Shown here: positions 6,957 to 32,577 of the stretch, piece after piece
Position numbering within the stretch: the first letter of the stretch is position 1
Layout of the letters: each line of letters opens with the position of its first letter
NCBI RefSeq assembly: GCF_947496075.1
Contig: NZ_CANMBJ010000006.1
Span: 729,001 to 793,000, forward strand
Length of the DNA: 64,000 bases
Reading direction: 5' to 3'
Source of the DNA: an uncultured Tateyamaria sp.
GTDB lineage: Bacteria; Pseudomonadota; Alphaproteobacteria; Rhodobacterales; Rhodobacteraceae
Position numbers and translations under genes: made by a program
Notes under the pieces: model-generated
What the model was told of the DNA's origin: nothing
Databases searched by the model: none
The model's input: only the letters and a program-made list of their open reading frames with translations

Positions 6957-7024
6957 AATGTCTCCTTCGACGAGCCGCACTGCAGCAATGATGTCCTATG
7001 TTGAACGGCAGGAATGGGCCGCCC
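6957..7024 (+). repeat. 68-bp dispersed repeat, copy A
   Basis: It starts AATGTC, has the hairpin core degenerated to GCACTGCAGC, and ends ATGGGCCGCCC. The length between the AATGTC and GGGCC ends is the same 68 bases as in copies B, D, E, F and G. It lies between the methyltransferase stop and the recombinase stop. Confidence 0.6.
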
Positions 7025-7044
7025 GTGTGGGCGACCCAGACATG

Positions 7045-7677
7045 TTAGATTTCAATAGCTTCCGCAATAGCCAATGCGTCCTCAAGTTCGACGCCGAGAT
7101 ATCTGACCGTACTATCCATCTTGGTGTGGCCTAGAAGGAGCTGAACAGCGCGAAGGTTGCCGGTCTTCTTATAGATTTGGGTAACCTTGGTACGTCGCAT
7201 AGAGTGCGTTCCGTATGCGCTGGCCTCTAGGCCGATTGAGGTGACCCAATCCCGGACAATGCGGGCATACTGGCGGGTCGAGATGTGCAGGCGCTCATGG
7301 AAGCGGCCCGGCCAAAGGTACTCCGAGCCAACCATGAGCTCGTCTTCCATCCACTTCTCGACCGAGGCGCGGGTGCCTTCCGAAATCTCGAAGCGCACCG
7401 GTTTCTGCGTTTTGCTTTGTAGAACGGAAGCGCGTTCCTTGATCTGGCCAGACGCCATTACATCCACGACTTTCATCTTTACAAGGTCACAGCCTCGAAG
7501 CTTGCTGTCGATTGCCATGTTGAACAGTGCTAGGTCGCGGTGGTTTTCGGCCAGTTCGAGACGAACCCTGATCGCCCAGACGTGTTTTGGTTTCAAAGGT
7601 CGCTTCTGGCCTACGATGCGCCCCTTGTTCCAGGCGGGGCGAAGCGCGCGAATGACAGGTAAGTTTGGTGTTTCCAT
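7045..7677 (-). CDS. Tyrosine recombinase/integrase
   Basis: This gives 210 residues from METPNLPV; the upstream in-frame extension is unlikely to be translated. Catalytic residues are visible in order: Arg in AIDSKLRGCDL, Lys region in LQSKTQKPVRFE, His-x-x-Arg in THSMRRTKV, His in LLGHTKMDST and the nucleophile Tyr in VRYLGV. The protein lacks the N-terminal SAM-like arm of full phage integrases, so it is a short stand-alone catalytic type common in Rhodobacteraceae. No tRNA, att direct repeat or phage gene is recognised next to it. Its 3' end abuts repeat copy A, but a link is not shown. Confidence 0.85.
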   Translation of the reverse strand: METPNLPVIRALRPAWNKGRIVGQKRPLKPKHVWAIRVRLELAENHRDLALFNMAIDSKLRGCDLVKMKVVDVMASGQIKERASVLQSKTQKPVRFEISEGTRASVEKWMEDELMVGSEYLWPGRFHERLHISTRQYARIVRDWVTSIGLEASAYGTHSMRRTKVTQIYKKTGNLRAVQLLLGHTKMDSTVRYLGVELEDALAIAEAIEI

Positions 7678-8046
7678 GACTGATCCTCCGATCCGCCATG
7701 CCCTCCCACAACGACAACCCGAAGTTGACAAGGCACCGTATCACGGTCTTGCTGCGCTTCACCCTAGGTCCGGATCACCCTATCCCGCGAGTTCACGTTT
7801 CGCGCAGCCTGCGCTCTTAGCGTAGAACATCCGGCGAGCGTTTGATTTCTGATGCTGGCTTGCGGCGGCCTAACACGCTCTGGACAAAACGGCCTTGTTT
7901 CCTTGCCGTATTCACTCAAGCACGGAAACTGCGCGGTCATGGCTCAAGAATCGCGATGTTGAGGTGGTGTTGTCCAAATTGGCCTTTTGTTCACTTTGGT
8001 CGAGACTCAGCATCGACAAAGCCGTACGGTCGTCATCTGAAGCGAT
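7678..8046. other. Intergenic stretch upstream of the recombinase
   Basis: Open frames here (for example 7842-8087 on plus) have no recognisable motif and biased, Cys/Arg-rich composition. The stretch may hold promoters for the recombinase (minus) and the BLUF gene (plus). Nothing else is recognised. Confidence 0.4.
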
Positions 8047-8052
8047 GTGATC

Positions 8053-8523
8053 ATGCGTCTATCAATGCATGTTCATGCATCGCTTAATCCCGCAGGGAGC
8101 CAAATCATCACAAATCTTATCCAGATCGTTTATGTGTCACAGCCGTTTGGGTTCGACGAGCCGACACTGGCAGGAATTTTGCTAGATGCCAGACGCTGTA
8201 ATAAGCGGGATGACGTGACTGGCGCGTTGGTTTGTCGACATGACATCTACCTTCAACTGCTAGAAGGTCCGGAAGATGCAGTGCGCGCAGCCTATGCACG
8301 GATTTGTCGCGATGATCGTCATGCTGGGGTCAAAGAACTCCTGAATCTCAAGATACAAAGTCGATTGTTTGCAAGTTGGGCGATGCTTCATGATCCTGCG
8401 AAGACTTGGATTTGGACGGAAGAAGAGATCGCAGATGCGGCACTTGATCGCGCAGAACCAGCAGAAATCATAAAAGTATTCAAAGACCTATCGGATCGAT
8501 CCGGGAAACCGGCTGTGCATTGA
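8053..8523 (+). CDS. BLUF-domain blue-light sensor, stand-alone
   Basis: This is about 156 residues from ATG 8053; GTG 8047 and ATG 8065 are alternatives. The BLUF domain starts at about residue 25 with IQIVYVS (flavin-contact Tyr), followed by RRCNKRDDVTGAL (conserved Asn), YLQLLEG (conserved Gln) and FASWAM (Trp-x-Met). All key flavin-site residues are therefore present. There is no output domain, so it belongs to the short BLUF class that signals through a partner protein. A GGGAG lies inside the frame at about 8095, 8 bases before two ATC codons, and a 16-bp palindrome covers 8065-8080, so the true start is uncertain. The next gene, 47 bases on, is a 2OG oxygenase. Confidence 0.85.
   Translation: MRLSMHVHASLNPAGSQIITNLIQIVYVSQPFGFDEPTLAGILLDARRCNKRDDVTGALVCRHDIYLQLLEGPEDAVRAAYARICRDDRHAGVKELLNLKIQSRLFASWAMLHDPAKTWIWTEEEIADAALDRAEPAEIIKVFKDLSDRSGKPAVH
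8065..8080. promoter_or_regulatory. 16-bp palindrome ATGCATG-TT-CATGCAT
   Basis: This is a perfect 7-bp inverted repeat with a 2-base centre, overlapping the possible start region of the BLUF gene. If translation begins further downstream this would be an operator or UTR hairpin. Unproven. Confidence 0.3.
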
Positions 8524-8569
8524 TGCAGACCCTTCTCGCATCCACGCAGACGCGAACCATGATTTGTAA

Positions 8570-9133
8570 ATGGTGGGCGGAATGATGGGTGTGCACTCAG
8601 TGCCCGATGCGTTTACGACGTGGGAATGTGATCGCATTGTTGCGGCAATCGCCAAAATGCCCGCCGACGAGGCGCTGCTTGTGGGCCGCAATCGGGATCA
8701 CAATTTGCGTAATGCGGAACTCCTTTGGATGGACGATGTCGGAGACCTCAGCTGGGTGATGACCCGGTTGATTGAGCTTGTTAGTCATTCTAACAACCAA
8801 CAGTTTGATTTCGACGTGCGTGAATTTGCGGAAAGCCCGCAAATTGCCAGTTATGATGCGGCCAAAGAGGGACATTTTGCATGGCATTCTGACATTGGTC
8901 ATGGTCCCGCTGCCGGTAAAAGAAAGCTCACACTTGTTCTTCAATTGAGCAATCCTGACACCTACGACGGGGGTGACCTGGAAGTCAGGCCAAGTGCTCA
9001 AGTCCTCTTGGCCAATCGGGCGCAGGGATCAGTGAGTGTGTTTCCTAGCTTTGTGCTGCATCAAGTAACGCCGATCAAGCGGGGCATTCGGCGTTCGCTG
9101 ACCGTCTGGGCGCATGGCCCACCGTTTCGCTGA
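8570..9133 (+). CDS. 2OG-Fe(II) oxygenase, PKHD/prolyl-hydroxylase type
   Basis: The 187 residues (from ATG 8570, or 8582 with GGGCGGA close upstream) show the double-stranded beta-helix iron triad: FAWHSDIGHG (His and Asp), FPSFVLHQVTPI (distal His) and RGIRRSLTVWAHGP (Arg that binds 2-oxoglutarate). DGGDLEV is typical of the PiuC/PKHD hydroxylase branch. The enzyme would hydroxylate a protein or small-molecule substrate using O2 and 2-oxoglutarate in the cytoplasm. It follows the BLUF gene by 46 bases on the same strand, so co-transcription is possible. Confidence 0.85.
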   Translation: MVGGMMGVHSVPDAFTTWECDRIVAAIAKMPADEALLVGRNRDHNLRNAELLWMDDVGDLSWVMTRLIELVSHSNNQQFDFDVREFAESPQIASYDAAKEGHFAWHSDIGHGPAAGKRKLTLVLQLSNPDTYDGGDLEVRPSAQVLLANRAQGSVSVFPSFVLHQVTPIKRGIRRSLTVWAHGPPFR

Positions 9134-9544
9134 AGGCGGCTCGAAGAGGTCAAGTGCTAGAAACCACCGGCTCTGTTTGAAAATGGGTCACGTCAGCTAG
9201 CATTGCAAATTAGGCGCTAGGCGACTATGTAGGAGATACAAAGTTGTGGTCTTCTTCGGCAAGGCGCATCGTCTGCCAAAATTAGCTGCAATTATCTATC
9301 ACCAAAATTCGATTGCCACATGCCGGAACAGGGATTTGGCGCTTGGGACGGTTGCCGGCTGATTGCGCACGACCACGTCGCTCATGCGTCATGTTTTTCC
9401 GACCTAGCGGCCGGGCGGACCAGCGATTTGCGCCCGGGCATTGAGTACGAGTCGTCAATAAATCGACCTCGAAACGGCTCTGACAAAATGTCTTGTCAGC
9501 GCAACAAACAGTGAGGCGGCGCTTTCTCCGTCATAGGATCAAAA
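9134..9544. other. Intergenic stretch with hairpin upstream of 9545
   Basis: No frame here looks coding; the 64-codon frame at 9320 lacks motifs. A perfect 7-bp hairpin, CTGACAA-n6-TTGTCAG, lies at 9480-9499, 45 bases before the next ATG, and may be a regulatory or UTR structure. Confidence 0.4.
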
Positions 9545-9898
9545 ATGACTTTTCCTGACTGGACGAAACCCGGCATCTACGGTGCTTTGGGTGGCGCGAT
9601 TGCGGTTTCTATAATTGGCTTCACTTGGGGTGGCTGGACAACAAGCAGCAACGCCCAAACCATGGCGCAGGACCTCGCATCTGAGGAAGTGACTTTGGCG
9701 ATGGTTCCGGTGTGCCTCAACCTGTCGGCGGCTGATCCAGAGCGCACACAGAAGCTCGCAGCTCTACAAGAGATTTCTGGCTTCGGGCGTCGCACTGCGA
9801 TGATGGAAACGGGCTGGGCGACCTACCCAGGCTCAGATACGCCGGACCGTGACCTTGCAGACGCTTGTCTTGCGGGGCTTGAATTGGATGGATCATAG
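9545..9898 (+). CDS. Conserved-looking small membrane-anchored protein
   Basis: The 117 residues carry one N-terminal transmembrane segment (about 10-30, YGALGGAIAVSIIGFTWGGW). The soluble part holds two Cys residues (PVCLNL and DACLAG). The pattern matches small roseobacter proteins I have no name for. It precedes the Cys-repeat protein by 46 bases on the same strand, so both may act at the cell envelope. Function unknown. Confidence 0.6.
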   Translation: MTFPDWTKPGIYGALGGAIAVSIIGFTWGGWTTSSNAQTMAQDLASEEVTLAMVPVCLNLSAADPERTQKLAALQEISGFGRRTAMMETGWATYPGSDTPDRDLADACLAGLELDGS

Positions 9899-9944
9899 AT
9901 CAAAAGCCCCGCTGCAATCGTCGCAATCAGCTTGCGGGACGCCT

Positions 9945-10715
9945 ATGTTGAAGGAAGCCCATATTCTTTGGGTCCTTTTCATGGGCCCCGTTATTGCTCT
10001 GCTACTCTTTGCAATGCCGGCCATTGCCCAAATCATGCCGGAAAACGCCAGCGCAAAGAGCTATGGCGACGGTTGGGAATGCAACGTTGGGTACCGCGCG
10101 ATCGACGAGACCTGTGCAGCTATTGTGGTCCCCGAAAACGCCTATGAGACAAACCGCACCTATGGATCCGGCTGGGAATGTCATCACGGATTTCGCAAGG
10201 TCGATGAAACAGCCTGCGTTGCAGTGGTTGTCCCTGATGGTGGGTTCCTAGACCCTTCAGGCGAACGCTGGCGCTGCCTGCGCGGATTTCTCAAAGTCGA
10301 CGATGCTTGCCAAGAGGTCGTCGTGCCTGAAAATGCCTATCTGGTGGATGGAACCTATGGGTCTGCGTGGGTATGCGAACGCGGGTTCGAGCAGGTGGAT
10401 GACAGTTGCTCCGCAATCGCGGTCCCGGTCAACGGATATCTAAACGGGTCCCGCTACGGTCAACCCTGGTCATGCGAACGTGGGTTTTTCGAACAAGACG
10501 GTCTTTGCGAGGCCGTCGATATCCCGGAATTCGCATATTTCGACGGTGCATCTTACGGCGAGGGATGGAAATGCCAGCGGGGGTATGAAGTTTCAGGTGA
10601 AGGATGCGAAGCGATTAACATGCCCGCCAACGCCCATCTCGACAGGTCTGGGAACCGTTGGGAATGCAACCGGAACTTCCAAAAGTCCAAGGGTCTGTGC
10701 GTTCTCAGGAATTGA
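9945..10715 (+). CDS. Exported protein of seven Cys-pair repeats
   Basis: The start at ATG 9945 gives 256 residues with a signal peptide/TM segment (about 7-27, ending AIAQ); the longer frame from 9849 overlaps the previous gene. The rest is seven tandem repeats of about 33 residues, each reading [IV]P-x-N-A-x5-YG-x-W-x-C-x2-GF-x4-D-x2-C-x-[AE]-V. Each repeat has two Cys 13-15 apart, so one disulfide per repeat is likely. The fold is not one I can name. It lies upstream of the DUF1611/racemase pair in the same orientation with a 70-base gap. A role in binding or in the envelope is inference. Confidence 0.75.
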   Translation: MLKEAHILWVLFMGPVIALLLFAMPAIAQIMPENASAKSYGDGWECNVGYRAIDETCAAIVVPENAYETNRTYGSGWECHHGFRKVDETACVAVVVPDGGFLDPSGERWRCLRGFLKVDDACQEVVVPENAYLVDGTYGSAWVCERGFEQVDDSCSAIAVPVNGYLNGSRYGQPWSCERGFFEQDGLCEAVDIPEFAYFDGASYGEGWKCQRGYEVSGEGCEAINMPANAHLDRSGNRWECNRNFQKSKGLCVLRN

Positions 10716-10785
10716 ACGCCGCGCACCGCGAGATCCACATCAATATCCTGTCGAGCAACAGTCTCGCCACCAAAAGGAAGATACG

Positions 10786-11976
10786 ATGAAATCCGAAATC
10801 CAAACGGTAGATACCGTTCGCCGTCCCGCAAGGGGCGCCCAAACGCCCCCCGTGATCCTTAACGCACCAGCACAATCATCTTCGCTCACTCAAATCCCGA
10901 CAGCAGTTGTCTACTGCGAAGGTAACTTTGCTAAAATTGACGGTAAGACGGCCAACGGCCTTGTACGCCATTCAGAGGCCTACAGGATTGTTTCGGTCAT
11001 CGACAGCACCTGTAGCGACGAGAACGCCGGGCGGGTTCTTGATGACGTGATCAACGATATACCAATCCTCGAGAGCCTGAACATCGCTATCGCCCGCGAA
11101 TCCTCCGTACCTGATACTTTCATCTACGGCATGGCCCCCTCAACAGGGCGGCTTTCGAATGTCGATCGTGGTGTCGTGCTAGATGCGATCGCGCGCGGTA
11201 TGAACATCGTCAGTGGCCTGCATGAATACCTCAGTGACGATCCCGAAATTGCACAAGCCGCATTGGACAGACAGGTCACCATCCGCGACATCCGCAAACC
11301 CAAGAGCAGCAAAAACATGCGCTTGTTCGACGGCAGTGTCGCGGACGTCAATGCGCTACGCATCGCTGTTCTGGGGACCGACTGCGCCATAGGAAAACGG
11401 ACCACTGCGACGGTCTTGGCACGCGCCCTCAACTCAAAGGGCATCAAGACTGTACTGGTTGGCACGGGTCAGACGGGCCTGATGCAAGGCGCAAAATATG
11501 GCGTGGCCATGGATGCCGTCCCGCCCCAATTCTGCTGCGGCGAACTTGAGGGTGCGATTGTCGCCGCCTCAGAGGCGGAACAACCCGATGTCATTTTGAT
11601 CGAGGGCCAAGGTGCGCTCAGCCATCCAGCGTTCTGTACATCGGCCTTTATCCTGCGCGGCAGCCAACCTGACGCCGTCATCCTTCAGCATGCCCCAAAA
11701 CGCAGCCATCGCTGCGATTTTCCCAATATGCCAATGCCCACCCCGACAAGCGAGATTGCTTTGATCGAGGCCTTTTCTGACACCAAGGTCATCGGCATCA
11801 CGCTCAACCACGAGGGGATGTCGGAAGCCGAGATCACGAATACGATTGCAGCCCAAAGCAAGAAACTTGAGCTGCCCGTCACTGACGCGCTTAGCAGACC
11901 AGCGGCGCATTTGCTGGCGATGGTTGCTGCGGCCTATCCTGGCCTGCAGCAAGGAACACCCGTGGCCGCGATTTGA
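10786..11976 (+). CDS. DUF1611/DgcN-like P-loop protein
   Basis: This gives 396 residues from ATG 10786, preceded by AAAGGAAG; the ORF from 10480 extends into the previous gene. An N-terminal Rossmann-like part (about 45-190) is followed by the P-loop domain with LGTDCAIGKRTTA (Walker A variant), VLVGTGQTGLMQG and LIEGQGALSHP, all diagnostic of DUF1611. The family includes DgcN, reported as a D-glutamate N-acetyltransferase that works with a partner enzyme. Here the partner slot is a PLP racemase whose start overlaps this stop, so a D-amino-acid pathway is a fair inference, though the substrate is not shown. Confidence 0.8.
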   Translation: MKSEIQTVDTVRRPARGAQTPPVILNAPAQSSSLTQIPTAVVYCEGNFAKIDGKTANGLVRHSEAYRIVSVIDSTCSDENAGRVLDDVINDIPILESLNIAIARESSVPDTFIYGMAPSTGRLSNVDRGVVLDAIARGMNIVSGLHEYLSDDPEIAQAALDRQVTIRDIRKPKSSKNMRLFDGSVADVNALRIAVLGTDCAIGKRTTATVLARALNSKGIKTVLVGTGQTGLMQGAKYGVAMDAVPPQFCCGELEGAIVAASEAEQPDVILIEGQGALSHPAFCTSAFILRGSQPDAVILQHAPKRSHRCDFPNMPMPTPTSEIALIEAFSDTKVIGITLNHEGMSEAEITNTIAAQSKKLELPVTDALSRPAAHLLAMVAAAYPGLQQGTPVAAI

Positions 11977-13094
11977 ACTGCCCACGCATAGAAGTTGATC
12001 TGCGCAAATTGCGGCACAACACACGAACAGTTGTCGAGCGCTTGAAAGGGCGTGGCATTCGGGTGACTGCGGTGACCAAAGCGGTATGTGGGCATCCGGC
12101 CATGGCACAGGCCATGCTTGACGGCGGCATCGAGGGCTTGGCTGAGGCGCGTTTGAGCAATGTGAAGCGGTTGCGCCAGGCTGGCATGACTTGTCCGATC
12201 ACCTTGATCAGAACACCAATGTTGAGCCAGGTCGATGACATCGTGCAGGTCTGTGAGGCGAGCTACAACACAGAGATACCTGTGATCGCAGCATTGGCCG
12301 CTGCTGCACTCCGGCAAAACACGGCTCACGGCATCATCTTGATGGCCGAAATGGGTGACCTGCGCGAAGGGATCATGCCACAAGACATTGGATATGTAGG
12401 ACAGCAAGTCGTGGACATGCCCGGTGTGGCGCTGAAAGGCATCGGTGCCAACTTCGCCTGTCTGAGCGGCATGGCCCCTAGCGCGACAAAAATGCAGGCC
12501 CTGACTTCGCTTGCCAATAAAGTCGAGGGGCAGTGTGGCCCGTTCCTTGAGACGGTATCTGGCGGCAACTCTGCAAATTTGCCTTGGGCGTTCGGCTCGC
12601 GCGCTACCGGCCGGATTAACGATCTGCGCATTGGCGAAGCCATACTGCTTGGCATGGATCCGATCACAGGAGATCAGATTGGTGGTTTGTTTCGAGACAC
12701 CTTCACGCTTGTCGCCGAAGTGATCGAAACCGACACCAAGACAGTGAACCCACTCTTAGGCACCGCGGATCACGCACCGGCAATAATTCGGCTCGTTCCT
12801 ACCACCTCAGAAACGACAAGGATCATTCTTGCCCTTGGAAACCAAGACGTGGATGTGGCGGGGCTTTCGATGCCTGCTGGCAGTACACTTGTCGGTGCGA
12901 CAAGCGATCATCTCGTCATTGGCACGACAGATCAGAAGCTCCGCGTTGGATCGGAAATGCAGTTTCGGATGAACTATAGCGCATTGATGCGCGCCATGGC
13001 CGCGCCTGACATTCAAACGAATCTACACAATGACCGGCCTCGGTCGCAGGTAAACGATGCCCATGGTCCAAAGAAACACCTGGCATTGGTTTGA
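11973..13094 (+). CDS. Alanine/ornithine racemase family PLP enzyme
   Basis: The 373-residue fold-type III enzyme has its N-terminal strand PRIEVDLRKLRHNTR and the Schiff-base Lys in VTAVTKAVCGHP. MAEMGDLREGI and VSGGNSANLPW mark the PLP-phosphate region, matching the YhfX/ornithine racemase branch rather than Alr. The frame opens with TTG overlapping the upstream TGA (TTGA), which suggests reinitiation and tight coupling. There is no better start nearby. It would interconvert L- and D-amino acids for use by the DgcN-like partner. The exact amino acid is unknown. Confidence 0.8.
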   Translation: MNCPRIEVDLRKLRHNTRTVVERLKGRGIRVTAVTKAVCGHPAMAQAMLDGGIEGLAEARLSNVKRLRQAGMTCPITLIRTPMLSQVDDIVQVCEASYNTEIPVIAALAAAALRQNTAHGIILMAEMGDLREGIMPQDIGYVGQQVVDMPGVALKGIGANFACLSGMAPSATKMQALTSLANKVEGQCGPFLETVSGGNSANLPWAFGSRATGRINDLRIGEAILLGMDPITGDQIGGLFRDTFTLVAEVIETDTKTVNPLLGTADHAPAIIRLVPTTSETTRIILALGNQDVDVAGLSMPAGSTLVGATSDHLVIGTTDQKLRVGSEMQFRMNYSALMRAMAAPDIQTNLHNDRPRSQVNDAHGPKKHLALV

Positions 13095-13143
13095 CCGACA
13101 GTGTTGGGGCCCGGCAAAGAGAAATCAAAGAGGAAATTATCAC

Positions 13144-13335
13144 TTGGCAAAACTAACAAAAACAAGCGTGTTCAAGGCTCAAGCTCCCAATGCCGAACCA
13201 CCATTGGACAAGACAACCCGCATCGTTCGCAAGATGGTCGAAGAAGAGGCCGAGCAGCGCCAAGCCAAGAACGACCGTCTTCGCAACGCGCGCCTTGAAC
13301 GAGAAGCTAACACTCCGACAAAGCCGTCGCGTTAG
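13144..13335 (+). CDS. Small basic/acidic helical protein, unknown
   Basis: A TTG at 13144 lies 9 bases after AGAGGAAA and begins 63 residues, (M)AKLTKTSVFKAQAPNAEPP. The middle, TTRIVRKMVEEEAEQRQAK, is a strongly charged helix. The upstream part of the open frame overlaps the racemase and is not convincing. It looks like a conserved small roseobacter protein, but no function is known to me. Confidence 0.5.
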   Translation: MAKLTKTSVFKAQAPNAEPPLDKTTRIVRKMVEEEAEQRQAKNDRLRNARLEREANTPTKPSR

Positions 13336-13441
13336 GGGCGTAGGAAAGGTTTAACCAAGGTGACCACATCGCGACAACCCAGGTTTTGCCCGCATCTTTC
13401 AATCTGCTTGAGCGACCGGACACACCAGAAGGAATTTGCCA

Positions 13442-13723
13442 ATGACGCACGCAGACGAGAGCACAACAAAAGTTCACTATATCTGTCAGACATACGTGGA
13501 ACAGAAGCCAGGGCGCGACGGGCACACGAGCCTGAAGATTGGCAAACAATTTCAGTATTCCACGGCAGCAGATGCTCAGAATAGAGCGGAACGGGAAGCC
13601 CAGTCCGAGGATTGTGCCGGTGCCGATGCCTATATGATTAGTGAAGACCCAGTCAGTGGTGAGGTCGGATCACCGAGCTTCCTTGTCAGGCTCGGGAATG
13701 TCCCGGAAACCGATGACTACTAG
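13442..13723 (+). CDS. Small hypothetical protein, 93 residues
   Basis: ATG 13442 follows AGAAGGA with a normal spacer. The protein (MTHADESTTKVHYICQTYVE...) is acidic, with two Cys and no signal peptide; SLKIGKQFQYSTAADAQNRAER suggests a compact alpha/beta fold. It is the last gene of this same-strand run before repeat copy B. Function unknown. Confidence 0.55.
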   Translation: MTHADESTTKVHYICQTYVEQKPGRDGHTSLKIGKQFQYSTAADAQNRAEREAQSEDCAGADAYMISEDPVSGEVGSPSFLVRLGNVPETDDY

Positions 13724-13811
13724 CACTATGCTTATGGCTTGGGATCGTCCACGACGCATCTCACGACCATTGGCCGAGTTCGTCCGCAGTACAAATCGAG
13801 CATGCGCAGCG

Positions 13812-13879
13812 AATGGCAGCAGTGCGGGCTGCGACCGCAGCATTCAATGATCACGCCGAAGGTCCGGTATGGGCCGTTG
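13812..13879 (+). repeat. 68-bp dispersed repeat, copy B
   Basis: It begins AATGGC, has the core GGGCTGC-GACC-GCAGCATT (perfect 5-bp hairpin stem) and ends TATGGGCCGTTG. It lies just left of the AT-rich gene at 14017, which has copy C on its right. Confidence 0.75.
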
Positions 13880-14016
13880 AAACGCTCGCATCCCCAATTT
13901 GATCACGTCTTTCATTTGCTGCAGGTTACCCAAGATGATTACTTAGGTTTTCCATCATCAACAAAATGATATGACTATACGCAACCAAACAAACTATACT
14001 CTTGGTAAGGACATCC

Positions 14017-14898: not shown

Positions 14899-14966
14899 AA
14901 CGGCGGCTTTGCGGAAGCTGCACCGCAGCGACCCGCCCAAATGTGAGAGTCCGGTTTGGGCCGTCT
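14899..14966 (+). repeat. 68-bp dispersed repeat, copy C
   Basis: It begins AACGGC, has the core AAGCTGC-ACC-GCAGCGA with a 3-base rather than 4-base loop, and ends TTTGGGCCGTCT. Small compensating indels keep the total at 68 bases. A further TTTGGGCC at about 14981 may be a second remnant. Confidence 0.65.
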
Positions 14967-25429: not shown

Positions 25430-25461
25430 ATGTGTCCGTACGGACTTTGGCGGGAGAATAG

Positions 25462-25497
25462 GCCGTGCCGCGCAGATAAAGCGCGGCATGGCTTTTT
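25462..25497 (+). terminator. Rho-independent terminator of the CMD/SRPBCC operon
   Basis: GCCGTGCCGCGC-n7-GCGCGGCATGGC forms a 12-bp stem (one G-T pair) followed by TTTTT. It lies 33 bases after the last gene. Confidence 0.85.
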
Positions 25498-25612
25498 GTT
25501 AGTGCGCCAATTCCATTCCGCAAGCAAAGAGGACTGATGATGAACGATCGGTATCGCGAGCTTCGCTATGTCCAAAAAACGGGCAGGCAATGGCGGCGTA
25601 AATTCACACAAC

Positions 25613-25951: not shown

Positions 25952-25968
25952 GGTGGTATCCTTTCTCG

Positions 25969-26397
25969 TCAAGCGGTGCTTTGAGCCGGTCGCCACATCG
26001 GACCGACCAGTATGACCAGAACGAGGATGTTCCAGACCGCGTTCTCCCAATTGCCCGAGGTGATCGACCCTGAGCTGTCTACAAGGAACCAGCCGAGCAG
26101 CCCCGCAAAGACGGTCTTGCGGCAGCGCTCGCCGTCGAGGTCGTAGAGCCAGAGCGACACACAGTACATCGTCACGCCCCAGCCGGTGAGGAAGCCACCG
26201 GACAGCGCGGACAAGAACCATGTCTCGCGCGACTCGTAGGACGGGAAGCCGTCCAGCGGCCACGACAGCAAGTCGAGGCCCCATCGCAACGGCTCGTTGG
26301 TCGCCGGCATTGTGCCGAAAAAGCCCAATATCCCGAACCCTATGAGCGCGCCGCCCGAGAATTTCATCCAGAACTTATGTGCTGCGTGGCCGAACAT
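25969..26397 (-). CDS. Membrane protein of unknown function
   Basis: ATG 26397 (MFGHAAHKFWMKFSGG) gives 142 residues; an internal Met follows at residue 11. Four hydrophobic segments are seen, with the loop WPLDGFPSYESRETWFLSAL between the first two. It is divergent from the XRE regulator at 26508, 110 bases away, which may control it. No named family is recognised. Confidence 0.6.
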   Translation of the reverse strand: MFGHAAHKFWMKFSGGALIGFGILGFFGTMPATNEPLRWGLDLLSWPLDGFPSYESRETWFLSALSGGFLTGWGVTMYCVSLWLYDLDGERCRKTVFAGLLGWFLVDSSGSITSGNWENAVWNILVLVILVGPMWRPAQSTA

Positions 26398-26507
26398 GTC
26401 TTGCACACTCCATATGTATTTCGCCCCATTGCTATGAAGCACGAGGGACCTCAGCAATTACTTTGGAGGTAAGTGACAGCTCAGGATGCGGCGTATACCT
26501 TCCGGAC

Positions 26508-27281
26508 ATGCAAACCTTCCCCAACACATTGCGCCATTGGCGAAACCTACGGCGCTTCTCGCAACTCGACCTGGCAAACGAGGCGGGCATTTCCTCTCGC
26601 CATCTGTCGTTTCTCGAAACCGGTCGTGCGCGGCCAAGTCGCGAAATGGTCGTGCGGCTTGGTGAGACGCTGGAAGTTCCACTAGAGGCCCGGAACGAAA
26701 TGCTGACGGCCGCCGGTTTTGCCGCGCGGTATCGGTCTGCGGATTGGACCGCCGAAGAGATGGACCCGGTTCGCGCTGCGATTGAAACGACGCTTGCCAA
26801 TCACATGCCTATGCCCGGCCTCGCCGTTGATCGCCTCTGGACGATCCGCATGGCCAACCCTGCCGCACTGGCGCTTTTCTCATCCTTCGGAATCGGCGTC
26901 GGCGACAGCCTGCTGGACCTCATGGTGTCGGACGCGCTTCCGACCGTGGTGGAGAACTGGCCCGAGGTCGCCCATCACGCCGCGAAGCGGCTCCGAACCG
27001 AGAGCGCATCTGAAGGCGGCATTCCGGAGTTTGGTCCCGTCATTGCGCACCTTGAGAAGGCCCTGAAACCGATTGACCCCGCTCGAACACCGGTTATTCC
27101 GACGATCGTCGTTCAGGGCGATCAAAGGCTGTCCCTGTTCGCGACAATCGCCCAATTCGGAACGCCCGAAGATGTTGCGCTCGGCTCGTTGAAGATCGAA
27201 CTCTACTTCCCGATGGATCTGGAAACGGAGCACGTCTTTAAAGGAATGGCAGAGGACGAGACCGCTCAGCCTGCAATGTGA
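26508..27281 (+). CDS. XRE regulator with MmyB-like ligand domain
   Basis: The start at ATG 26508 gives 257 residues. The helix-turn-helix spans about 7-60: LRHWRNLRRFSQLDLANEAG and ISSRHLSFLETGRARPSREM. The remainder (about 95-250) follows the MmyB-like pattern, PMPGLAVDRLWTIRMANPAA, a PAS-like fatty-acid-binding fold in relatives. These regulators commonly control a divergent gene; here that is the membrane pair at 25613-26397. Confidence 0.88.
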   Translation: MQTFPNTLRHWRNLRRFSQLDLANEAGISSRHLSFLETGRARPSREMVVRLGETLEVPLEARNEMLTAAGFAARYRSADWTAEEMDPVRAAIETTLANHMPMPGLAVDRLWTIRMANPAALALFSSFGIGVGDSLLDLMVSDALPTVVENWPEVAHHAAKRLRTESASEGGIPEFGPVIAHLEKALKPIDPARTPVIPTIVVQGDQRLSLFATIAQFGTPEDVALGSLKIELYFPMDLETEHVFKGMAEDETAQPAM

Positions 27282-27685
27282 GCGCGAGGATCGTACCCAC
27301 CGGAGTTGCATATTGTTCGTACAGCCTGGGCACGTCTTCCCAAACCAGCGGAATATCGGTTTCGAACCTATAGGTCTTGCCGTCGCCGATATTGGAGAAG
27401 ACCGGCGTCGCACAAAGTCGTGCCCCTGCCCGGAGGTTGTCCATCGATGTGTGAGCTCAAGCAAGCACAGAGTTAGGGTCGCGGCGAATGGCGGCTAACA
27501 TAGGCCGAAAGCCATCGATTGTGTCCGCGATTTGTGAGCTAGCCAGAAGTTATATTTTGCACATGCAGCGAATGACCGGAATACGGGCTGCGAGCGCAGC
27601 ATCTTGATCGGTCGATAAATGACAGGAATGGGCCGTACTAGATTTGCCGTAGTGCAAAGAGACAGGGGACGCCATTTCGTCTACT
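27282..27685. other. Intergenic stretch with repeat copy D
   Basis: This lies between two convergent regulator genes. It holds the 68-bp repeat copy D and short frames without motifs. No gene is supported. Confidence 0.5.
27571..27638 (+). repeat. 68-bp dispersed repeat, copy D
   Basis: It begins AATGAC, has the core GGGCTGC-GAGC-GCAGCATC and ends GAATGGGCCGTAC. The stem is perfect and the length is 68 bases. Confidence 0.75.
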
Positions 27686-28585
27686 TCATGTATCGACAAG
27701 AAGTTGTGCATTGCACCAGTCCTGGACCGCATTGCAAAAGCGCTCGACGCGGGCGGGTCGCTTCGTTCCTGAAGCCAAAGCTAAATTCACCGGCAAACGC
27801 GCAGCTCTCAGGCTTGGTGCTACATCGGTCAAGGTTCCATGTTTGAGGTCTGACGCCACAAACCAATGCGGTAGGATGGCGATGCCGATGCCCTGCATTG
27901 CCGCTTCATAGACGGCAAAGATGTTGTCGCTTGCCAGTTTCGGTCGGACGTTAAATGTCCGAGTGGCATCGTTTTCATCAAACAGTTCGATCCGGTTCCC
28001 TTCGAAGGGACCAAGTGTCAGCCAGGGCAGTGCATCGACATCACTTCCAGCATGTCGCGCCAAGCAGTCCGGTGTTCCGACGACAAGGCGCTCCACCCGC
28101 GTCAACTCTCGAACAACGAGCGTCTCATCGGGCACGGGGCCGATCTTGAGCCAACAATCACACCCTTCCTCGGCAAAGCGAATGGTGTCATCGCGCAACT
28201 GCCAATCGATCGTTATGTTCGGGTGTTGCTTCATGAACTTGGCCGCTGCTTTAATGAACAGCCGTTGGCCCAATGCGACTGGCGCGATGACCCGGATCGT
28301 GCCTTTCAGTTCGTCATTCTCGCTATGACGATCTTCGATGGCCTCCCATTCTCCGAACATGCGGCGCGCATCTGACAGCAGCGCCAGACCGTCAGGGGTC
28401 AGTGTCACGTCATGTGTTGTGCGCCGCACCAGAACGACACCGAGGCGTTCTTCGAGTGCGGCGAGTTGTCGGGATACTGACGGCTGAGATGTGCCGAGAT
28501 CACGTGCAGCGCCGGACAGCGATTGCCGTTCCGCAATCCGAACAAAGGTCTCAAGCAGGGTGAGGCGGTCAAAACGAGTGCTCAT
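27686..28585 (-). CDS. LysR family transcriptional regulator
   Basis: The 299 residues have the helix-turn-helix at about 8-62: LLETFVRIAERQSLSGAARD and SQPSVSRQLAALEERLG. The effector domain belongs to the CrgA-like branch, with LGQRLFIKAAAKFMKQHP. It is divergent from the aldo/keto reductase at 28680, 94 bases away. This is the standard arrangement for a LysR gene that controls an AKR. Confidence 0.92.
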   Translation of the reverse strand: MSTRFDRLTLLETFVRIAERQSLSGAARDLGTSQPSVSRQLAALEERLGVVLVRRTTHDVTLTPDGLALLSDARRMFGEWEAIEDRHSENDELKGTIRVIAPVALGQRLFIKAAAKFMKQHPNITIDWQLRDDTIRFAEEGCDCWLKIGPVPDETLVVRELTRVERLVVGTPDCLARHAGSDVDALPWLTLGPFEGNRIELFDENDATRTFNVRPKLASDNIFAVYEAAMQGIGIAILPHWFVASDLKHGTLTDVAPSLRAARLPVNLALASGTKRPARVERFCNAVQDWCNAQLLVDT

Positions 28586-28679
28586 ACGCCTATCGTATAG
28601 CAGTGTTACTTTTCATGCTACTACCGTTGTTCACTCCGGTGGGTATGTTCCTTGCAACACAAACGAAAGGAACCACGAC

Positions 28680-29474
28680 ATGACAAACGATCTGAACACG
28701 ACCTTCACTTTCCTGAACGGGCGGACCGTAGATCGCATCGGATATGGCGCAATGCGCCTGACCGGTCAGCCGCGTAACTTTGGGCCCTACGCCGATTGGC
28801 AGGGCGGCATTGAACTATTGCGACGCGCCCGTGATCTTGGTGTCTCCCATATCGACACAGCCCGGGCATATGGACCTCATGACAACGAAAGGCTGATTGC
28901 AGACGCCTTGGTCGATGACGATGGCAGCTACGGTGAGATGTTCATCGCCTCCAAGGGTGGTGTGGAGAAGTCCGCCACCAGCATCAGTCGAGACACATCG
29001 GCTGAAACCATGAAGCGGCATCTTGATGAAAGCTTAGACAATCTTCGAACAGACAAGATCGATCTTTACTACGTGCATGCGCCAGACGGCATCACGCCAA
29101 TCTCTGAAAGTGTGGCTGCGCTTGAAGAGATGCGCCAGACGGGGAAGATCGACATGATAGGCCTGTCGAACGTGTCCCGTTCACAAGTCGAGGAAGCTTT
29201 GCGCGTCGCGCCTATAGCGGCTGTCCAGAACCGGTACTCGCCTGCCGACGCACGCGATGAGGCCCTCGAAGATATGATTGACTGGTTGAATGATCAGGGC
29301 ATCGCCTTTGTCCCACACGGACCCTTGGGTGCGAACCCGATGAAGCAGGGTGCGGCGGTCAATCCCAGTGATGCGCTCCGCACATTGTTGGCGCGCGCAC
29401 CGAACGTTCTTGTCATTCCGGGAACGACGACCATCGCACATCTGGAAGACAACGCAGCGGCATTGGCGGCATGA
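28680..29474 (+). CDS. Aldo/keto reductase
   Basis: ATG 28680 after AAAGGAACC gives 264 residues. The TIM-barrel AKR signature is complete: RIGYGAMRL, ISHIDTA-like VSHIDTARAYGPHDNE (catalytic Asp and Tyr), FIASKGG (catalytic Lys) and YYVHAPDG (His). The C-terminal IPGTTTIAHLEDN binds NADPH phosphate. It reduces an aldehyde or ketone with NADPH; the substrate is unknown. It is divergent from a LysR regulator and followed after one base by a small membrane protein gene. Confidence 0.93.
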   Translation: MTNDLNTTFTFLNGRTVDRIGYGAMRLTGQPRNFGPYADWQGGIELLRRARDLGVSHIDTARAYGPHDNERLIADALVDDDGSYGEMFIASKGGVEKSATSISRDTSAETMKRHLDESLDNLRTDKIDLYYVHAPDGITPISESVAALEEMRQTGKIDMIGLSNVSRSQVEEALRVAPIAAVQNRYSPADARDEALEDMIDWLNDQGIAFVPHGPLGANPMKQGAAVNPSDALRTLLARAPNVLVIPGTTTIAHLEDNAAALAA

Positions 29475-29475
29475 C

Positions 29476-29694
29476 ATGCGGTCGGTTCTGATCACCTGGG
29501 CGGCAGCATGGCCAACAATCTCGGCCCTGCTGTTTGCTTTTGAAGGAATGCTTGAGCATTGGCCGCTGGCCTTCAGGACGCTTGTTTTGACCGGCCTTAT
29601 GGTCCCTGCAATGAGCCTCTTTGTTGTTCCCTACCTGACCCGATTACTTGATCGTATATACGCAAGCTGGCGCTCAGCCGAAAAGACCAGATAA
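29476..29694 (+). CDS. Small membrane protein after the AKR gene
   Basis: ATG 29476 starts one base after the AKR stop and gives 72 residues. Two hydrophobic helices (about 5-24 and 33-54) and a basic C-terminus are seen. It resembles the small DUF2798-like membrane proteins by layout, but that is not firm. It is probably translated by coupling with the reductase. Confidence 0.55.
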   Translation: MRSVLITWAAAWPTISALLFAFEGMLEHWPLAFRTLVLTGLMVPAMSLFVVPYLTRLLDRIYASWRSAEKTR

Positions 29695-29748
29695 AAGCTT
29701 GTGCTTACACTGGCTGACCATGAACGCGATTACTGCTTGGGTGAGGCC

Positions 29749-29816
29749 AATGTCTGCTATGCGGGCTGCGACTGCAGCATCGAAGTCGTGTGCTGAAAGT
29801 CGGCTATGGGCCGACC
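29749..29816 (+). repeat. 68-bp dispersed repeat, copy E
   Basis: It begins AATGTC, has the core GGGCTGC-GACT-GCAGCATC and ends CTATGGGCCGACC. It ends 8 bases before the stop of the minus-strand HNH-like gene. Confidence 0.75.
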
Positions 29817-29824
29817 ATGACACC

Positions 29825-30511
29825 TCAATCAAACGGTCTTCTAAATTCAATTTTTCGAATTCGGCCTGTGCGCTCTCGTAACCAGTCAATACCATTCACG
29901 TCTGTGTATTCGACTTCCACAACAGGGTGACCGAACATAGAACTCTCGAGGTTCTCGTACGGCACCGCATCACTGATTGTTTGACGAGGTGGAATTGTGC
30001 CAAACACGACCTCTATGTCAGCGAAAGGCTCATCGAAATTTTCCACACGGTATGCTCTCGCAACGCAATCAAGAAATGGAGCCGTAGTTGGGTTTTTGAT
30101 ACGCAGGATCCAACTGCCGTTTTCTTCTTCGCACCAACCAGTTAACCCTATGTCAGACTGTCCAGTTGACAGTTCGGAGAAGACAGCCTCTTCGTGTAAC
30201 TCTTTCCATATTTGAAGCACTGACTCTTTAAAGTCGGCTCCGTTGTTCTTGTCGATGAGCGTTGCACAAGCACCGCAAAGCCAAATCCCGTTACTAGCAG
30301 ATTTACGCTGAAGGGCGGTTTGCTCGGAGTTATAGCGCGGTCCATTGTCTTGAGCTGCGCAGATATGTGCTGCAACCCCCTGAGAGATCGACTTGGCTTG
30401 GTCGGCTGTAGATGGACCAACGGTGGTTTTTCTACAATCTGGATTACTGCATCTGTAGCCCGCACGTTCTGCCAAAAGTCGCTTAGTTGTCGCAGTAAAA
30501 TCATCTCTCAT
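29825..30511 (-). CDS. HNH-like zinc-binding protein, AT-rich orphan
   Basis: The 228 residues begin with an HNH-related module: RAGYRCSNPDCRKTTVGP, GVAAHICAAQDNGPRY and NGIWLCGACATLIDKNN. This is the CxxC...AHI...GPRY...NGIWLCxxCAxLID family, where the last His of classical HNH is an Ala, so nuclease activity cannot be assumed. The C-terminal half (about 120-228) is a beta-rich region of unknown type. Relatives with this N-module are often found next to mobile or defence genes, as far as I recall. GC is lower than in the flanks. It lies between repeat copies E and F. Confidence 0.7.
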   Translation of the reverse strand: MRDDFTATTKRLLAERAGYRCSNPDCRKTTVGPSTADQAKSISQGVAAHICAAQDNGPRYNSEQTALQRKSASNGIWLCGACATLIDKNNGADFKESVLQIWKELHEEAVFSELSTGQSDIGLTGWCEEENGSWILRIKNPTTAPFLDCVARAYRVENFDEPFADIEVVFGTIPPRQTISDAVPYENLESSMFGHPVVEVEYTDVNGIDWLRERTGRIRKIEFRRPFD

Positions 30512-30540
30512 GAGTAATTTTCTCGTCCAAGAACGTCTGA

Positions 30541-30610
30541 AATGTCACCGCAACTTAGCCATACTAGCTCCGTAACGTCAGCCCAAAACGCCCCTGATCT
30601 TTGGGCCGTT
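30541..30610 (+). repeat. Possible degenerate 68-bp repeat next to copy F
   Basis: It begins AATGTCACC and ends ATCTTTGGGCCGTT about 70 bases later, immediately before copy F. The hairpin core is not preserved, so this is tentative. Confidence 0.3.
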
Positions 30611-30611
30611 C

Positions 30612-30679
30612 AACGTCCGGTTCGGCGTGCTGCACCGCAGCAGCAGTTCGACCGGCTCAATGACCGCAATGGGCCGGAC
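30612..30679 (+). repeat. 68-bp dispersed repeat, copy F
   Basis: It begins AACGTC, has the core GTGCTGC-ACC-GCAGCAGC and ends GCAATGGGCCGGAC, 68 bases in all. It lies between the two AT-rich minus-strand genes. Confidence 0.7.
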
Positions 30680-30726
30680 GCATAATTCTGCAGCTGCGCA
30701 TCAAAGAACTTCAGTTGGCTATGGAT

Positions 30727-32397
30727 TCATTCCCAGAACCCGTCGGGAGCAGGTCGCTCAACCTCGAACTCATCGTATTTCCTGACCCATTGATAGTTTG
30801 TTGTAGCGCTGCCGGTACGCTCGAAATCAGAATTTAGACATTCAATCTGTTGGTTGGAGAGTGGAAACCGGGTGCCGGTAAGTATGTGTTCACCGTTCGG
30901 GGCCAACAATGGTTGGCCCGTTTGGACCCTATCCCGCAGGTACCAATATGCCCATGAGGTCTCCGCACAACCGCCCTCTGACTGGGTCGCTTCTTGTTTG
31001 TATCGATAAGCTACATCAAAGGGAGTTGGGTAGAAGTTCTTATCCCCAAATAGATAAACTGACTGTCCCGTACTGATTTTGAAAGCTAAGATCTTCTCCC
31101 AGAACAAGAATGACAGAGTGGAGGTGCCGTCATCATATGGGTGTATCCAAGAGTTGAAGTTTACATCATCGGCAACAGGTAAGAGCTGTACAGTAATTCG
31201 ATAATCCTCGTCGCTCCAGTTGACCCAAGTGCGGTGTAGACCGTTCATGATGTGATTTGCATCTGTGTCGTCTGAGATGACAACAATGTTTCCTAGTGTT
31301 GGACCACCTGTTCGCTCGAAGGTTGCGTGATCAGCGCTGAACCAAGGCGATGAAACCGTCGCGAGTAGATCGATGCTAGAAAACACTGATCCCGAAAAGT
31401 CGACACCAGTTGCATCGATCCCAACAAAATCTGTCCCTCGAAGGTTCGCACCAGTTAAAACAGTCTTTCCTAGGCTGCGAAGTTCTTGCTGGTAAAGGTC
31501 TATGCTACCAACAAGTTTGAGGGAGCTGAGATCGGCGTCAGGGATCTGGAAAGGTACAGACAACTCGTCGAAATTCACCCCCGCAGATATTAGGAGTTGA
31601 AGCAACTGACCTCGTTCTGGACTATAAGTTGAATTACTAAGATCTTGCCCCGCAAGCGTTTCAAGGTCACCCGGAACCATCTCGCCTAGTTCACTTTTTT
31701 CCACACTCAACTGCATTTGACCAATTATTTCAGCGACTTGGTTGTCTACCTGATAAGGCTCAAGGGAGTAAATTAAAGCTTGGATCCTAGCCTGCAGGCT
31801 TTGGCTTGGTGTCCATAAGCTTTGCTCCGCCCTTTCCCGGTACATTTCGTCCATTAGACTAGGCATCTGTGCCGCAAAAACTGCTGAACTTCTGGCCGAC
31901 TTAGCTATCGATATCTGCAAGTCAATCAACTCGTTTTGTTTGTCGAGCCTGTCAACCTGCCGGATCGCCGCCAACGCAGTGATGGTAGCAATTACAGCGC
32001 CTATTGCCGTGAAACAGAAGCCAATTGCTATTGTCGCTCCCCAGAAGCTCATGACGGTTTTCGAAATAGCTCTCACTCGTGTCAGAATTTCGTCACGAGA
32101 ACCCGAAAGCTGGGAGGAATTTGGTAGGATCTCTCCCAAGAGGCTCTCAAAGATGTCTTGATCTGACTTACTTTCCGAGTTGCCTCGCAAATCTGAAAAT
32201 GAGCGTGTCAGGCTTCGAAAGACTGCAAAAAGGAATAACGCAAACGTTGCTCCTGCAAATCCAACCCAAACGCTTCCTTCTAACAACCACTCCGCGCGAA
32301 ATAAAAAGCCAAGCGCAAGGACGATGCCTATGGCAACACCAATTAGAACTGGCGTCAAAGCTCCCAACACGCGGGCTAACACAGTAACAGACTTCAT
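30727..32397 (-). CDS. Membrane protein with pentapeptide-like segment, orphan
   Basis: The 556 residues have two N-terminal TM helices (about 12-32 and 38-58), a third near 118-140 and a coiled-coil-prone stretch (about 140-165, AIRQVDRLDKQNELIDLQIS). Around 315-345 there is a short pentapeptide-type run, ANLRGTDFVGIDATGVDFSG. The C-terminal region (about 350-556) is a soluble domain of unknown fold, rich in aromatic residues. GC is clearly lower than in housekeeping genes. It lies between repeat copies F and G. Proteins of this build are seen as singletons in accessory islands; function unknown. Confidence 0.65.
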   Translation of the reverse strand: MKSVTVLARVLGALTPVLIGVAIGIVLALGFLFRAEWLLEGSVWVGFAGATFALFLFAVFRSLTRSFSDLRGNSESKSDQDIFESLLGEILPNSSQLSGSRDEILTRVRAISKTVMSFWGATIAIGFCFTAIGAVIATITALAAIRQVDRLDKQNELIDLQISIAKSARSSAVFAAQMPSLMDEMYRERAEQSLWTPSQSLQARIQALIYSLEPYQVDNQVAEIIGQMQLSVEKSELGEMVPGDLETLAGQDLSNSTYSPERGQLLQLLISAGVNFDELSVPFQIPDADLSSLKLVGSIDLYQQELRSLGKTVLTGANLRGTDFVGIDATGVDFSGSVFSSIDLLATVSSPWFSADHATFERTGGPTLGNIVVISDDTDANHIMNGLHRTWVNWSDEDYRITVQLLPVADDVNFNSWIHPYDDGTSTLSFLFWEKILAFKISTGQSVYLFGDKNFYPTPFDVAYRYKQEATQSEGGCAETSWAYWYLRDRVQTGQPLLAPNGEHILTGTRFPLSNQQIECLNSDFERTGSATTNYQWVRKYDEFEVERPAPDGFWE

Positions 32398-32509
32398 CGC
32401 TTTTGGTGCGCTCCCAGGTTGTCGATTAGTCTCTACAACGTCGCTTCGAAATCAAGTACTCGTTTTGGTGTCCTAAAGCTCTCCGCCGCAATATGCCGCT
32501 GGCCCATCG

Positions 32510-32577
32510 AATGTCGGCTATCCAGGCTGCAATCGCAGCATCAAATTCAATGATCGAACGGCGGCTTTGGGCCGTTT
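32510..32577 (+). repeat. 68-bp dispersed repeat, copy G
   Basis: It begins AATGTC, has the core AGGCTGC-AATC-GCAGCATC and ends CTTTGGGCCGTTT. The stem is perfect and the length is 68 bases. Confidence 0.75.

What the first reader, a model, noticed from the sequence alone, without database searches (positions are those of the whole stretch)
6957..32577. Family of 68-bp hairpin repeats with fixed length
Seven intergenic elements (6957, 13812, 14899, 27571, 29749, 30612, 32510) share an AATGTC-like left end, a GCTGC-n3/4-GCAGC hairpin near base 20-30, and a right end of TNTGGGCCGTY. Six of the seven keep exact spacing from end to end, and the seventh compensates its indels. The sequences between are diverged, so selection or copying preserves the geometry. 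All seven lie on the same strand orientation and in the left 33 kb; none was seen in the right 31 kb. I know dispersed repeats of this general look from marine proteobacteria, but no described function.
Basis: seen in the sequence. Interest (0 to 1): 0.72.

Follow-up and report, generated by a model that had tools for sequence, protein, structure and literature searches.

The report
Gene-cassette joining sites of roseobacters
The repeats are real, and they look like the joints at which a very conserved DNA-recombining enzyme of marine roseobacter bacteria adds or swaps gene cassettes, a set-up that works like an integron but has a different enzyme and different sites.

Summary
Observation confirmed: seven copies, one strand, end-to-end spacing kept; a model of the seven finds 24 more in the genome at E<0.005. 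78 of 149 family genomes (one per genus, own included) have copies, against 6 of 190 class-wide, three of them in the family. The hairpin is not the conserved feature (perfect in 61 of 177 copies; folding z near 0).

The 68 bp are boxes B-C of a longer site (A-B-C). A 210-aa tyrosine recombinase under strong purifying selection (median dN/dS 0.013) lies 20-25 bp from box C in 66 of 77 roseobacter loci. Loci with similar recombinase-side sequence match from GGGCCG of box C rightwards, while left of it 102 of 105 pairs are at background. Box C is thus a recombination joint. A two-gene 2.24-kb segment (SDR, AraC regulator) is shared with another roseobacter, both ends at the GGGCC joint. Neighbouring sites nearly always share orientation, regardless of gene direction. 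Best reading: an integron-like gene-cassette system with a non-IntI recombinase and a double-stranded composite site. Catalysis by this enzyme is inferred, not shown.

The parts
6908..7022 (+). A-B-C site 1 (reported copy 6957); junction GGGCC at 7016
   Evidence: nhmmer 61.8 bits; R1 54.8 bits
7016..7770 (.). recombinase unit: GGGCCG ... recombinase ... CCTAGGTC (degenerate box D; the GAGCCC right arm is not seen here)
   Evidence: left boundary by comparison with other recombinase loci; right boundary less sharp; coordinates
7045..7677 (-). tyrosine recombinase, 210 aa from ATG; catalytic R..K..HxxR..H..Y residues present by eye (motif recalled); stop codon 22 bp from the end of site 1
   Evidence: Pfam Phage_integrase 1.2e-16
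13777..13877 (+). A-B-C site 2 (reported copy 13812); junction GGGCC at 13871
   Evidence: 63.1 bits
14897..14965 (+). B-C site 3 (reported copy 14899, compensated indels); junction GGGCC at 14958
   Evidence: 35.8 bits
14997..15066 (+). box D-E following site 3 at the standard ~32-bp spacing (gene-less mini-unit)
   Evidence: E 1.8e-5
27437..27498 (+). partial A-B copy in front of site 4
   Evidence: E 2.8e-5
27517..27636 (+). A-B-C site 4 (reported copy 27571); junction GGGCC at 27630
   Evidence: 85.0 bits
27630..29807 (.). interval between consecutive junctions: LysR regulator (27686-28585 -) and aldo/keto reductase (28680-29474 +)
29741..29813 (+). B-C site 5 (reported copy 29749); junction GGGCC at 29808
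   Evidence: 56.2 bits
29808..30670 (.). interval: 228-aa gene (29825-30511 -), no Pfam hit
30572..30676 (+). A-B-C site 6 (reported copy 30612); junction GGGCC at 30671
   Evidence: 33.6 bits
30671..32568 (.). interval: pentapeptide-repeat protein gene (30727-32397 -)
32487..32575 (+). A-B-C site 7 (reported copy 32510); junction GGGCC at 32569; the segment 32324-32582 is shared (78.8%) with a Tritonibacter plasmid, near a recombinase gene there
   Evidence: 51.5 bits
32612..32708 (-). two overlapping box D-E matches in inverted orientation at the end of the cluster
   Evidence: E 3.4e-10 and 7.4e-10
3291..3350 (+). weak, degenerate B-C copy
   Evidence: 15.8 bits; E 0.0074

Best explanation
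The repeats are the recombination sites of a gene-cassette system. A cassette runs from GGGCCG (the right arm of one site) through one or two genes to the next A-B-C site, ending at that site's left arm AAnGTC; sites in a cluster therefore point one way whatever the direction of the genes. The likely enzyme is the 210-aa tyrosine recombinase whose gene is itself such a unit (GGGCCG ... recombinase ... GAGGTC). It would cut in the 6-bp spacer between the two arms and join unit ends to AAnGTC-N6-GAGCCC targets, giving junction C (AAnGTC-N6-GGGCCG) on one side and D (GAGGTC-N6-GAGCCCA) on the other; the closed circle would carry GAGGTC-N6-GGGCCG or AAnGTC-N6-GGGCCG. Boxes A and B would be accessory binding sites. 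Shown here: conserved boxes, a fixed B-C distance, a sharp joint at C and a less sharp one at D, fixed recombinase-site geometry, purifying selection on the recombinase, one gene cassette with both ends at C. Inferred: that this enzyme does the cutting, that circles form, the 6-bp length of the spacer as the exchange region, the role of A and B, and any benefit to the host.
For: Fixed geometry: A-B-C ends 20-25 bp (mostly 22-24) after the recombinase stop in 66 of 77 loci with enough flank, and box D starts mostly 71-74 bp before the start codon in 62 of 76. Joint at C: of 105 locus pairs with >=85% identical recombinase-side sequence, 102 have left flanks below 70% identity; in these 102, mean identity is 0.91 over 0..+25 from GGGCCG and at the all-pairs level left of it (linker 0.29 versus 0.30). 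Joint at D: in the 19 pairs (19 loci) that are >=95% identical between gene and D, identity is 1.00 through the nGKC of GAGGTC, 0.71 in the spacer block and 0.32 (background 0.29) 60-90 bases on. Other genes: 5 of 31 distinct ends of non-recombinase homology blocks (from four blocks) lie within 15 bp of a C junction; null mean 0.056, maximum 2 in 500. A 2.24-kb SDR+AraC cassette (86%) starts at GGGCC and ends at the GGGCC of its own A-B-C site (GGGTC in the partner) in the window's genome and in an uncultured Rhodobacteraceae, with unrelated sequence outside. The window's own last site: homology with a Tritonibacter plasmid ends 13 bp past its GGGCC. Orientation: neighbouring copies <=10 kb apart are 13 same, 0 opposite in the own genome (31 copies) and 12 same, 2 opposite in complete genome G090 (the 26 copies listed; one search counts 29); 44 same, 3 opposite around 61 recombinase loci; in L123 ten sites are all + while the ten ORFs I picked between them run 5 + and 5 -. 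Selection: recombinase median pS 0.70, pN 0.023, dN/dS 0.013; B-C spacing kept despite internal indels.
Against: No circle, empty site or activity was seen; the enzyme-site link rests on position and junctions. Only one gene cassette was found with both ends at C; for that gene pair, 11 other roseobacter loci examined hold the genes without C-bounded ends. The window's LysR-aldo/keto reductase interval gave no junction evidence: five homologous loci match the genes only, no A-B-C site was found in them and one has a box D. The D joint is sharp only in the closest pairs: in the 256 pairs at 85-95% the excess identity is confined to the first bases of D, and L171/L211 and L189/L191 stay similar well past D. 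The window's own recombinase unit has a degenerate D. A 316-bp fragment next to a C box in G007 has no detected C at its other copy, so one-sided joins occur. Two homology ends fall about 34 bp and one about 82 bp left of the element end, not at C. G001 has 9 sites and no recombinase hit at E<=1e-20. In the two loci compared by eye (L168, L192) the spacers at C and D differ, unlike classical phage-type recombination. Eleven of 77 loci lack a scored A-B-C; nine of them keep GGGCC at that place.
Confidence: 0.7

Rival explanations
1. An insertion-sequence-like element: only the recombinase unit (and gene-less C-32-D derivatives) moves, A-B-C is its preferred target, and genes between sites are ordinary island genes carried along.
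For: The recombinase unit has a precise left end and, in the closest pairs, a precise right end; gene-less C-(29-33 bp)-D copies exist: 26 of 101 copies score >=18 of 27 for box D, 25 of them at 29-33 bp, versus 1 of 202 control windows; several gene pairs occur elsewhere without sites.
Against: The SDR+AraC cassette has both ends at C; non-recombinase homology ends are enriched at C; clusters have one orientation across several genes.
Confidence: 0.21
2. A non-autonomous transposable repeat of MITE or REP type, whose length is kept by its own transposition; recombinase association is incidental.
For: Dispersed, up to tens of copies per genome; an inverted box (AAGCnGACATT) before box A seen by eye in several copies.
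Against: Spacers are randomised while boxes and B-C distance stay; fixed placement of the recombinase in 66 of 77 (C) and 62 of 76 (D) loci; mostly one orientation per cluster.
Confidence: 0.05
3. A structured RNA or cis-regulatory element of neighbouring genes.
For: A short stem in part of the copies; intergenic position.
Against: Orientation does not follow genes; no folding signal; no supporting covariation; no Rfam family matches it at gathering score.
Confidence: 0.02
4. A chromosome-organisation site with a polarity set by replication, such as a segregation or translocation signal.
For: Local polarity of copies.
Against: Copies cluster (G090: 14 adjacent pairs <=10 kb versus 1.5 expected), both polarities occur on one contig, and copies lie on plasmids and in a stretch absent from the same place in 19 genus-mates.
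Confidence: 0.02

Closest known systems
Integrons (IntI, attI, attC, gene cassettes; features recalled)
   Same: Arrays of gene units with sites in one orientation, recombination at a fixed point near the site's end, a tyrosine recombinase, many genes without a known domain (7 of 10 in L123).
   Different: The recombinase is 210 aa and far below the IntI cut-off (23 bits versus 265); no IntI above cut-off in 21 genomes; no attC-like folding; the GTTRRRY core (recalled) is not at the joint; genes run in both directions; the recombinase is itself a unit, in several copies in some genomes.
[quoted passage not shown] PMC9345347, passages read)
   Same: Tyrosine recombinases; element ends C and C' with a 6-bp spacer that includes bases from the neighbour.
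   Different: SE-6945 is a 7.1-kb multi-gene Vibrio element with two tyrosine recombinases; here one gene, or gene cassettes, in roseobacter arrays with composite sites.
Tn916/CTnDOT-type tyrosine recombinase elements (recalled)
   Same: Non-identical spacer (coupling sequence) at the two junctions.
   Different: Large conjugative elements with loose targets; no arrays of composite sites.
Xer/pdif modules (recalled)
   Same: Gene modules bounded by recombinase sites.
   Different: Sites are 28-bp dif-like, used by XerC/XerD in trans; here a longer site with its own nearby recombinase.

Membership tests
integron | integron integrase (IntI) with its own subfamily score | tested here: not met
   Recombinase scores 23 bits against TIGR02249 (cut-off 265); 0 of 21 genomes have a hit over the cut-off
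integron | attC sites that fold as single strands into a hairpin | tested here: not met
   40 of the 105 full-length copies folded: mean z -0.27 and -0.35; 4 and 3 of 40 below -2
integron | sites of an array in one orientation | tested here: met
   13:0, 12:2 and 44:3 same to opposite
integron | gene cassettes that move as units joined at one point of the site | tested here: inconclusive
   joint at C shown for the recombinase unit and enriched for other blocks; one gene cassette with both ends at C
integron | fixed platform: integrase gene next to attI and a cassette promoter | tested here: inconclusive
   recombinase has fixed C and D neighbours but lies inside arrays and in several copies in some genomes; promoter not tested
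SE elements | 6-bp spacer carried at the joints | tested here: inconclusive
   6 bp between the arms, differing between loci; origin of the spacer not traced
SE elements | several genes including two tyrosine recombinases | tested here: not met
   unit of about 750 bp with one recombinase gene
Xer/pdif modules | 28-bp dif-like site used by XerC/XerD | not tested
   only compared by eye with a recalled dif sequence; no similarity seen
structured RNA / Rfam family | match to a described family or covarying stem | tested here: not met
MITE/REP repeats | terminal inverted repeats with target duplication, or RAYT partner | not tested
   no empty sites were examined for duplications

The most novel reading that the evidence does not exclude
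A second, independently evolved gene-cassette platform besides integrons: a hyperconserved, catalytic-domain-sized tyrosine recombinase that is itself a cassette builds one-way arrays of genes in roseobacter islands and plasmids through a double-stranded composite site (A-B-C / D-E), and has shaped variable genome regions across the family.
Probability: 0.43. Interest if true: 0.92.

Novelty: new variant of a known kind. Interest (0 to 1): 0.8.

Why it matters
Roseobacters are abundant marine bacteria with very variable genomes (recalled). If these sites are cassette joints, part of their island and plasmid gene traffic has a mechanism that present annotation does not name: the enzyme is listed only as 'tyrosine-type recombinase/integrase' in the annotated records seen. 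It would also be a natural comparison for how integrons arose, because it builds arrays with a smaller enzyme and without folded single-stranded sites, and it gives a simple signature (GGGCCG joints) for finding cassettes and unknown genes.

Tried and rejected
RNA or DNA hairpin as the conserved feature: rejected. Replication-polarity site: disfavoured. Conventional integron: membership fails. Orthologous rpoB loci in 19 genus-mates: none of the 20 stretches (9.6-19.9 kb each) matches the window left of 32,758, so no empty-site comparison was possible. Prospective junction test with the window's LysR-aldo/keto reductase interval: matches cover genes only; inconclusive; of the window stretch 27400-32700 only the last site matched a plasmid record. 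Structure prediction from 24 near-identical sequences: mean pLDDT 42, not used. A divergent recombinase group (62-68% identical) lacks box C and was not followed. Literature: ten searches; six found no paper, and nothing on these repeats or this recombinase-site pairing showed in the titles and abstract starts of the other four (one search listed 20 of 89 papers, one search listed 11, one each; of these only PMC9345347 was opened). Subscription papers and preprints are not held, so absence from print is not established. Of PMC9345347 only 12 passages were read.
Full report
CHECK. The seven reported copies are present, on one strand, with fixed geometry. A sequence-only model of these seven, run over the whole 4.94-Mb genome (window = C6:729001-793000), lists 42 matches at E<=10, of which 31 have E<0.005; 24 of the 31 were not used to build it (150 of 1877 first-look candidates were scored, so weak copies may be missed). 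In the window the full-sensitivity scan finds the seven plus one weak copy at 3291. In 41 genomes, 24 have hits at E<=0.01: own, 18 of 19 genus-mates, 4 of 5 other family members, 1 of 16 class members. A model from 81 matches finds copies at E<=0.001 in 78 of 149 family genomes, one per genus and own included, and in 6 of 190 genomes drawn from the class, three of these six in the family.

ANATOMY. A local profile finds 101 copies in 799,471 bp of fetched clusters. The site is A-B-C: A = CGAAnGnCnGCTTTGTCCGC..TGAGTTCG..GATTTTGC, B = CGAATGTCnGCTATG + GCTGC/GCCGC..GCAGCATC, a linker of about 10 bp with almost no information, C = GAAnGTCnGCTATGGGCCGTC. The same core, AAnGnCnGCwwTG, starts each box. 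Box D (GATGCTGCG.....TCCGAnGGCGGC...GAGCCCA) follows C at 29-33 bp in 25 of the 26 copies (of 101) that score >=18 of 27; 1 of 202 control windows scores as high. D continues into GATGCTGC..TGCACGAATGTC, called E. The distance from B to GGGCCG is exactly 61 bp in 84 of 90 measurable copies, 8 of these by compensating +1/-1 changes. The perfect hairpin is in 61 of 177 copies and folding of 40 copies is about that of shuffled sequence.

ARRANGEMENT. Neighbouring copies mostly share orientation: own genome 13 same to 0 opposite within 10 kb and 17 to 1 within 20 kb; G090 (26 listed copies) 12 to 2 and 13 to 4. In L123 (G013) ten sites are all +, while the ten ORFs I picked between them run 5 forward and 5 backward, two of them filling the space between sites to within 40 bp on each side; 7 of these 10 ORFs have no Pfam hit and one is an IS-type transposase. 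In the window the last intervals hold a LysR-aldo/keto reductase pair, a 228-aa gene and a pentapeptide-repeat gene. At the orthologous rpoB position of 19 genus-mates nothing left of window base 32,758 is found in the 20 stretches fetched.

RECOMBINASE. The ORF beside copy 6957 is a tyrosine recombinase (Pfam Phage_integrase) of 210 aa from its ATG; catalytic residues R, K, HxxR, H, Y are present by eye. Of 77 with at least 90 bp of 3' flank, 66 have an A-B-C site ending 20-25 bp (mostly 22-24) after the stop; of 76 with enough 5' flank, 62 have box D, mostly 71-74 bp before the start. Of the 11 without a scored A-B-C, nine keep GGGCC at the same place by eye. For 68 open, ungapped genes, 2278 pairs: median pS 0.70, pN 0.023, dN/dS 0.013 (1665 pairs with usable dS; 608 saturated). 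Plasmids of Phaeobacter, Ruegeria TM1040 and Sulfitobacter carry it, annotated 'tyrosine-type recombinase/integrase'; all 68 phage records with a match are below 60% identity.

JOINTS. Blast between clusters showed recombinase loci matching from GGGCCG onward, with differing sequence before it. Of 83 loci given, 78 had C located; of their 3003 pairs 105 are >=85% identical on the recombinase side; 3 of them also share the left flank (>=70%) and were set aside; in the other 102 the identity is 0.91 over the first 26 bases and, left of GGGCCG, about that of all pairs (0.45/0.42 at -70..-51, 0.40/0.40 at -50..-31, 0.29/0.30 in the linker, 0.45/0.42 at -19..-9, 0.54/0.54 at -8..-1). On the 5' side (69 of 83 loci) the joint is less uniform: 19 pairs that are >=95% identical up to D stay identical through the nGKC of GAGGTC (1.00), fall to 0.71 in the spacer block, 0.89 in GAGCCCA (0.73 in all pairs) and to background 60-90 bases on; in the 256 pairs at 85-95% only the first bases of D are more alike than in all pairs. 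L171/L211 and L189/L191 stay similar further. So the unit starts at GGGCCG and ends in D, in the closest pairs at or just after GAGGTC; C and D read as hybrid sites with a 6-bp spacer.

GENE CASSETTES. Leaving recombinase matches out, 407 homology blocks gave 59 usable and 31 distinct ends; 5 ends, from four blocks, are within 15 bp of a C junction (null 0.056, maximum 2 of 500). Two of the five are the two ends of one block: 2243 bp at 86% between the own genome (C1) and an uncultured Rhodobacteraceae (L197). It begins at GGGCC and ends at the GGGCC of its A-B-C site (GGGTC in L197), with unrelated sequence on both sides; in L197 the recombinase unit follows. It holds a short-chain dehydrogenase and an AraC-family regulator. 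The same gene pair or part of it occurs in 36 of 295 family genomes, own included; of 13 loci inspected only these two extend to C junctions. The window's last site is shared, with the start of its gene, with a Tritonibacter plasmid up to 13 bp past its GGGCC; a further A-B-C-like site and a recombinase gene follow there. Counter-evidence: the LysR-aldo/keto reductase interval gave no junctions, one C box abuts a gene fragment with no detected C at its other copy, and three block ends lie 34-82 bp left of the element end.

READING. The simplest account of one-way arrays, fixed spacing, a fixed recombinase-site geometry and joints at one point is site-specific recombination that adds whole gene units at box C. 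It works like an integron but is not one by tested features. That the neighbouring recombinase performs it is the most likely but unproven step.

Noticed in passing
34191-34284 (+): Rhodo-rpoB RNA (RF03074, 83.3 bits), the only Rfam match at gathering score in the window, just upstream of a 1397-aa ORF taken to be rpoB.
   Followed up: no
32612-32708 (-): Two inverted box D-E matches at the right end of the cluster, just before sequence conserved in the genus-mates; G010 has an inverted D about 70 bp from the same border.
   Followed up: partly
L088, L089, L090, L095, L105: A second recombinase group (62-68% identical) without box C but with another hairpin after the gene; perhaps with its own site family.
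   Followed up: no
hits listed, e.g. G013:C13:70-138, G013:C17:70-138, G011:C33:137-205, G011:C126:137-206: Several copies lie at identical short distances from contig ends in different contigs, suggesting near-identical longer repeats that break assemblies.
   Followed up: no
L140 (G000:C5:147066-147354): Remnant pieces of a second recombinase gene beside a partial site in the own genome.
   Followed up: no
recombinase loci, first ~22 bp of the unit: GGGCCGYC-n6-GRCGGCCC inverted repeat close to the recombinase stop codon, stem changes often compensated between loci by eye; may be a terminator that doubles as the unit end.
   Followed up: partly
window 10480-13094: DgcN-like N-acetyltransferase and ornithine-racemase-like ORFs inside the site cluster, both below their curated NCBIfam cut-offs.
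   Followed up: no
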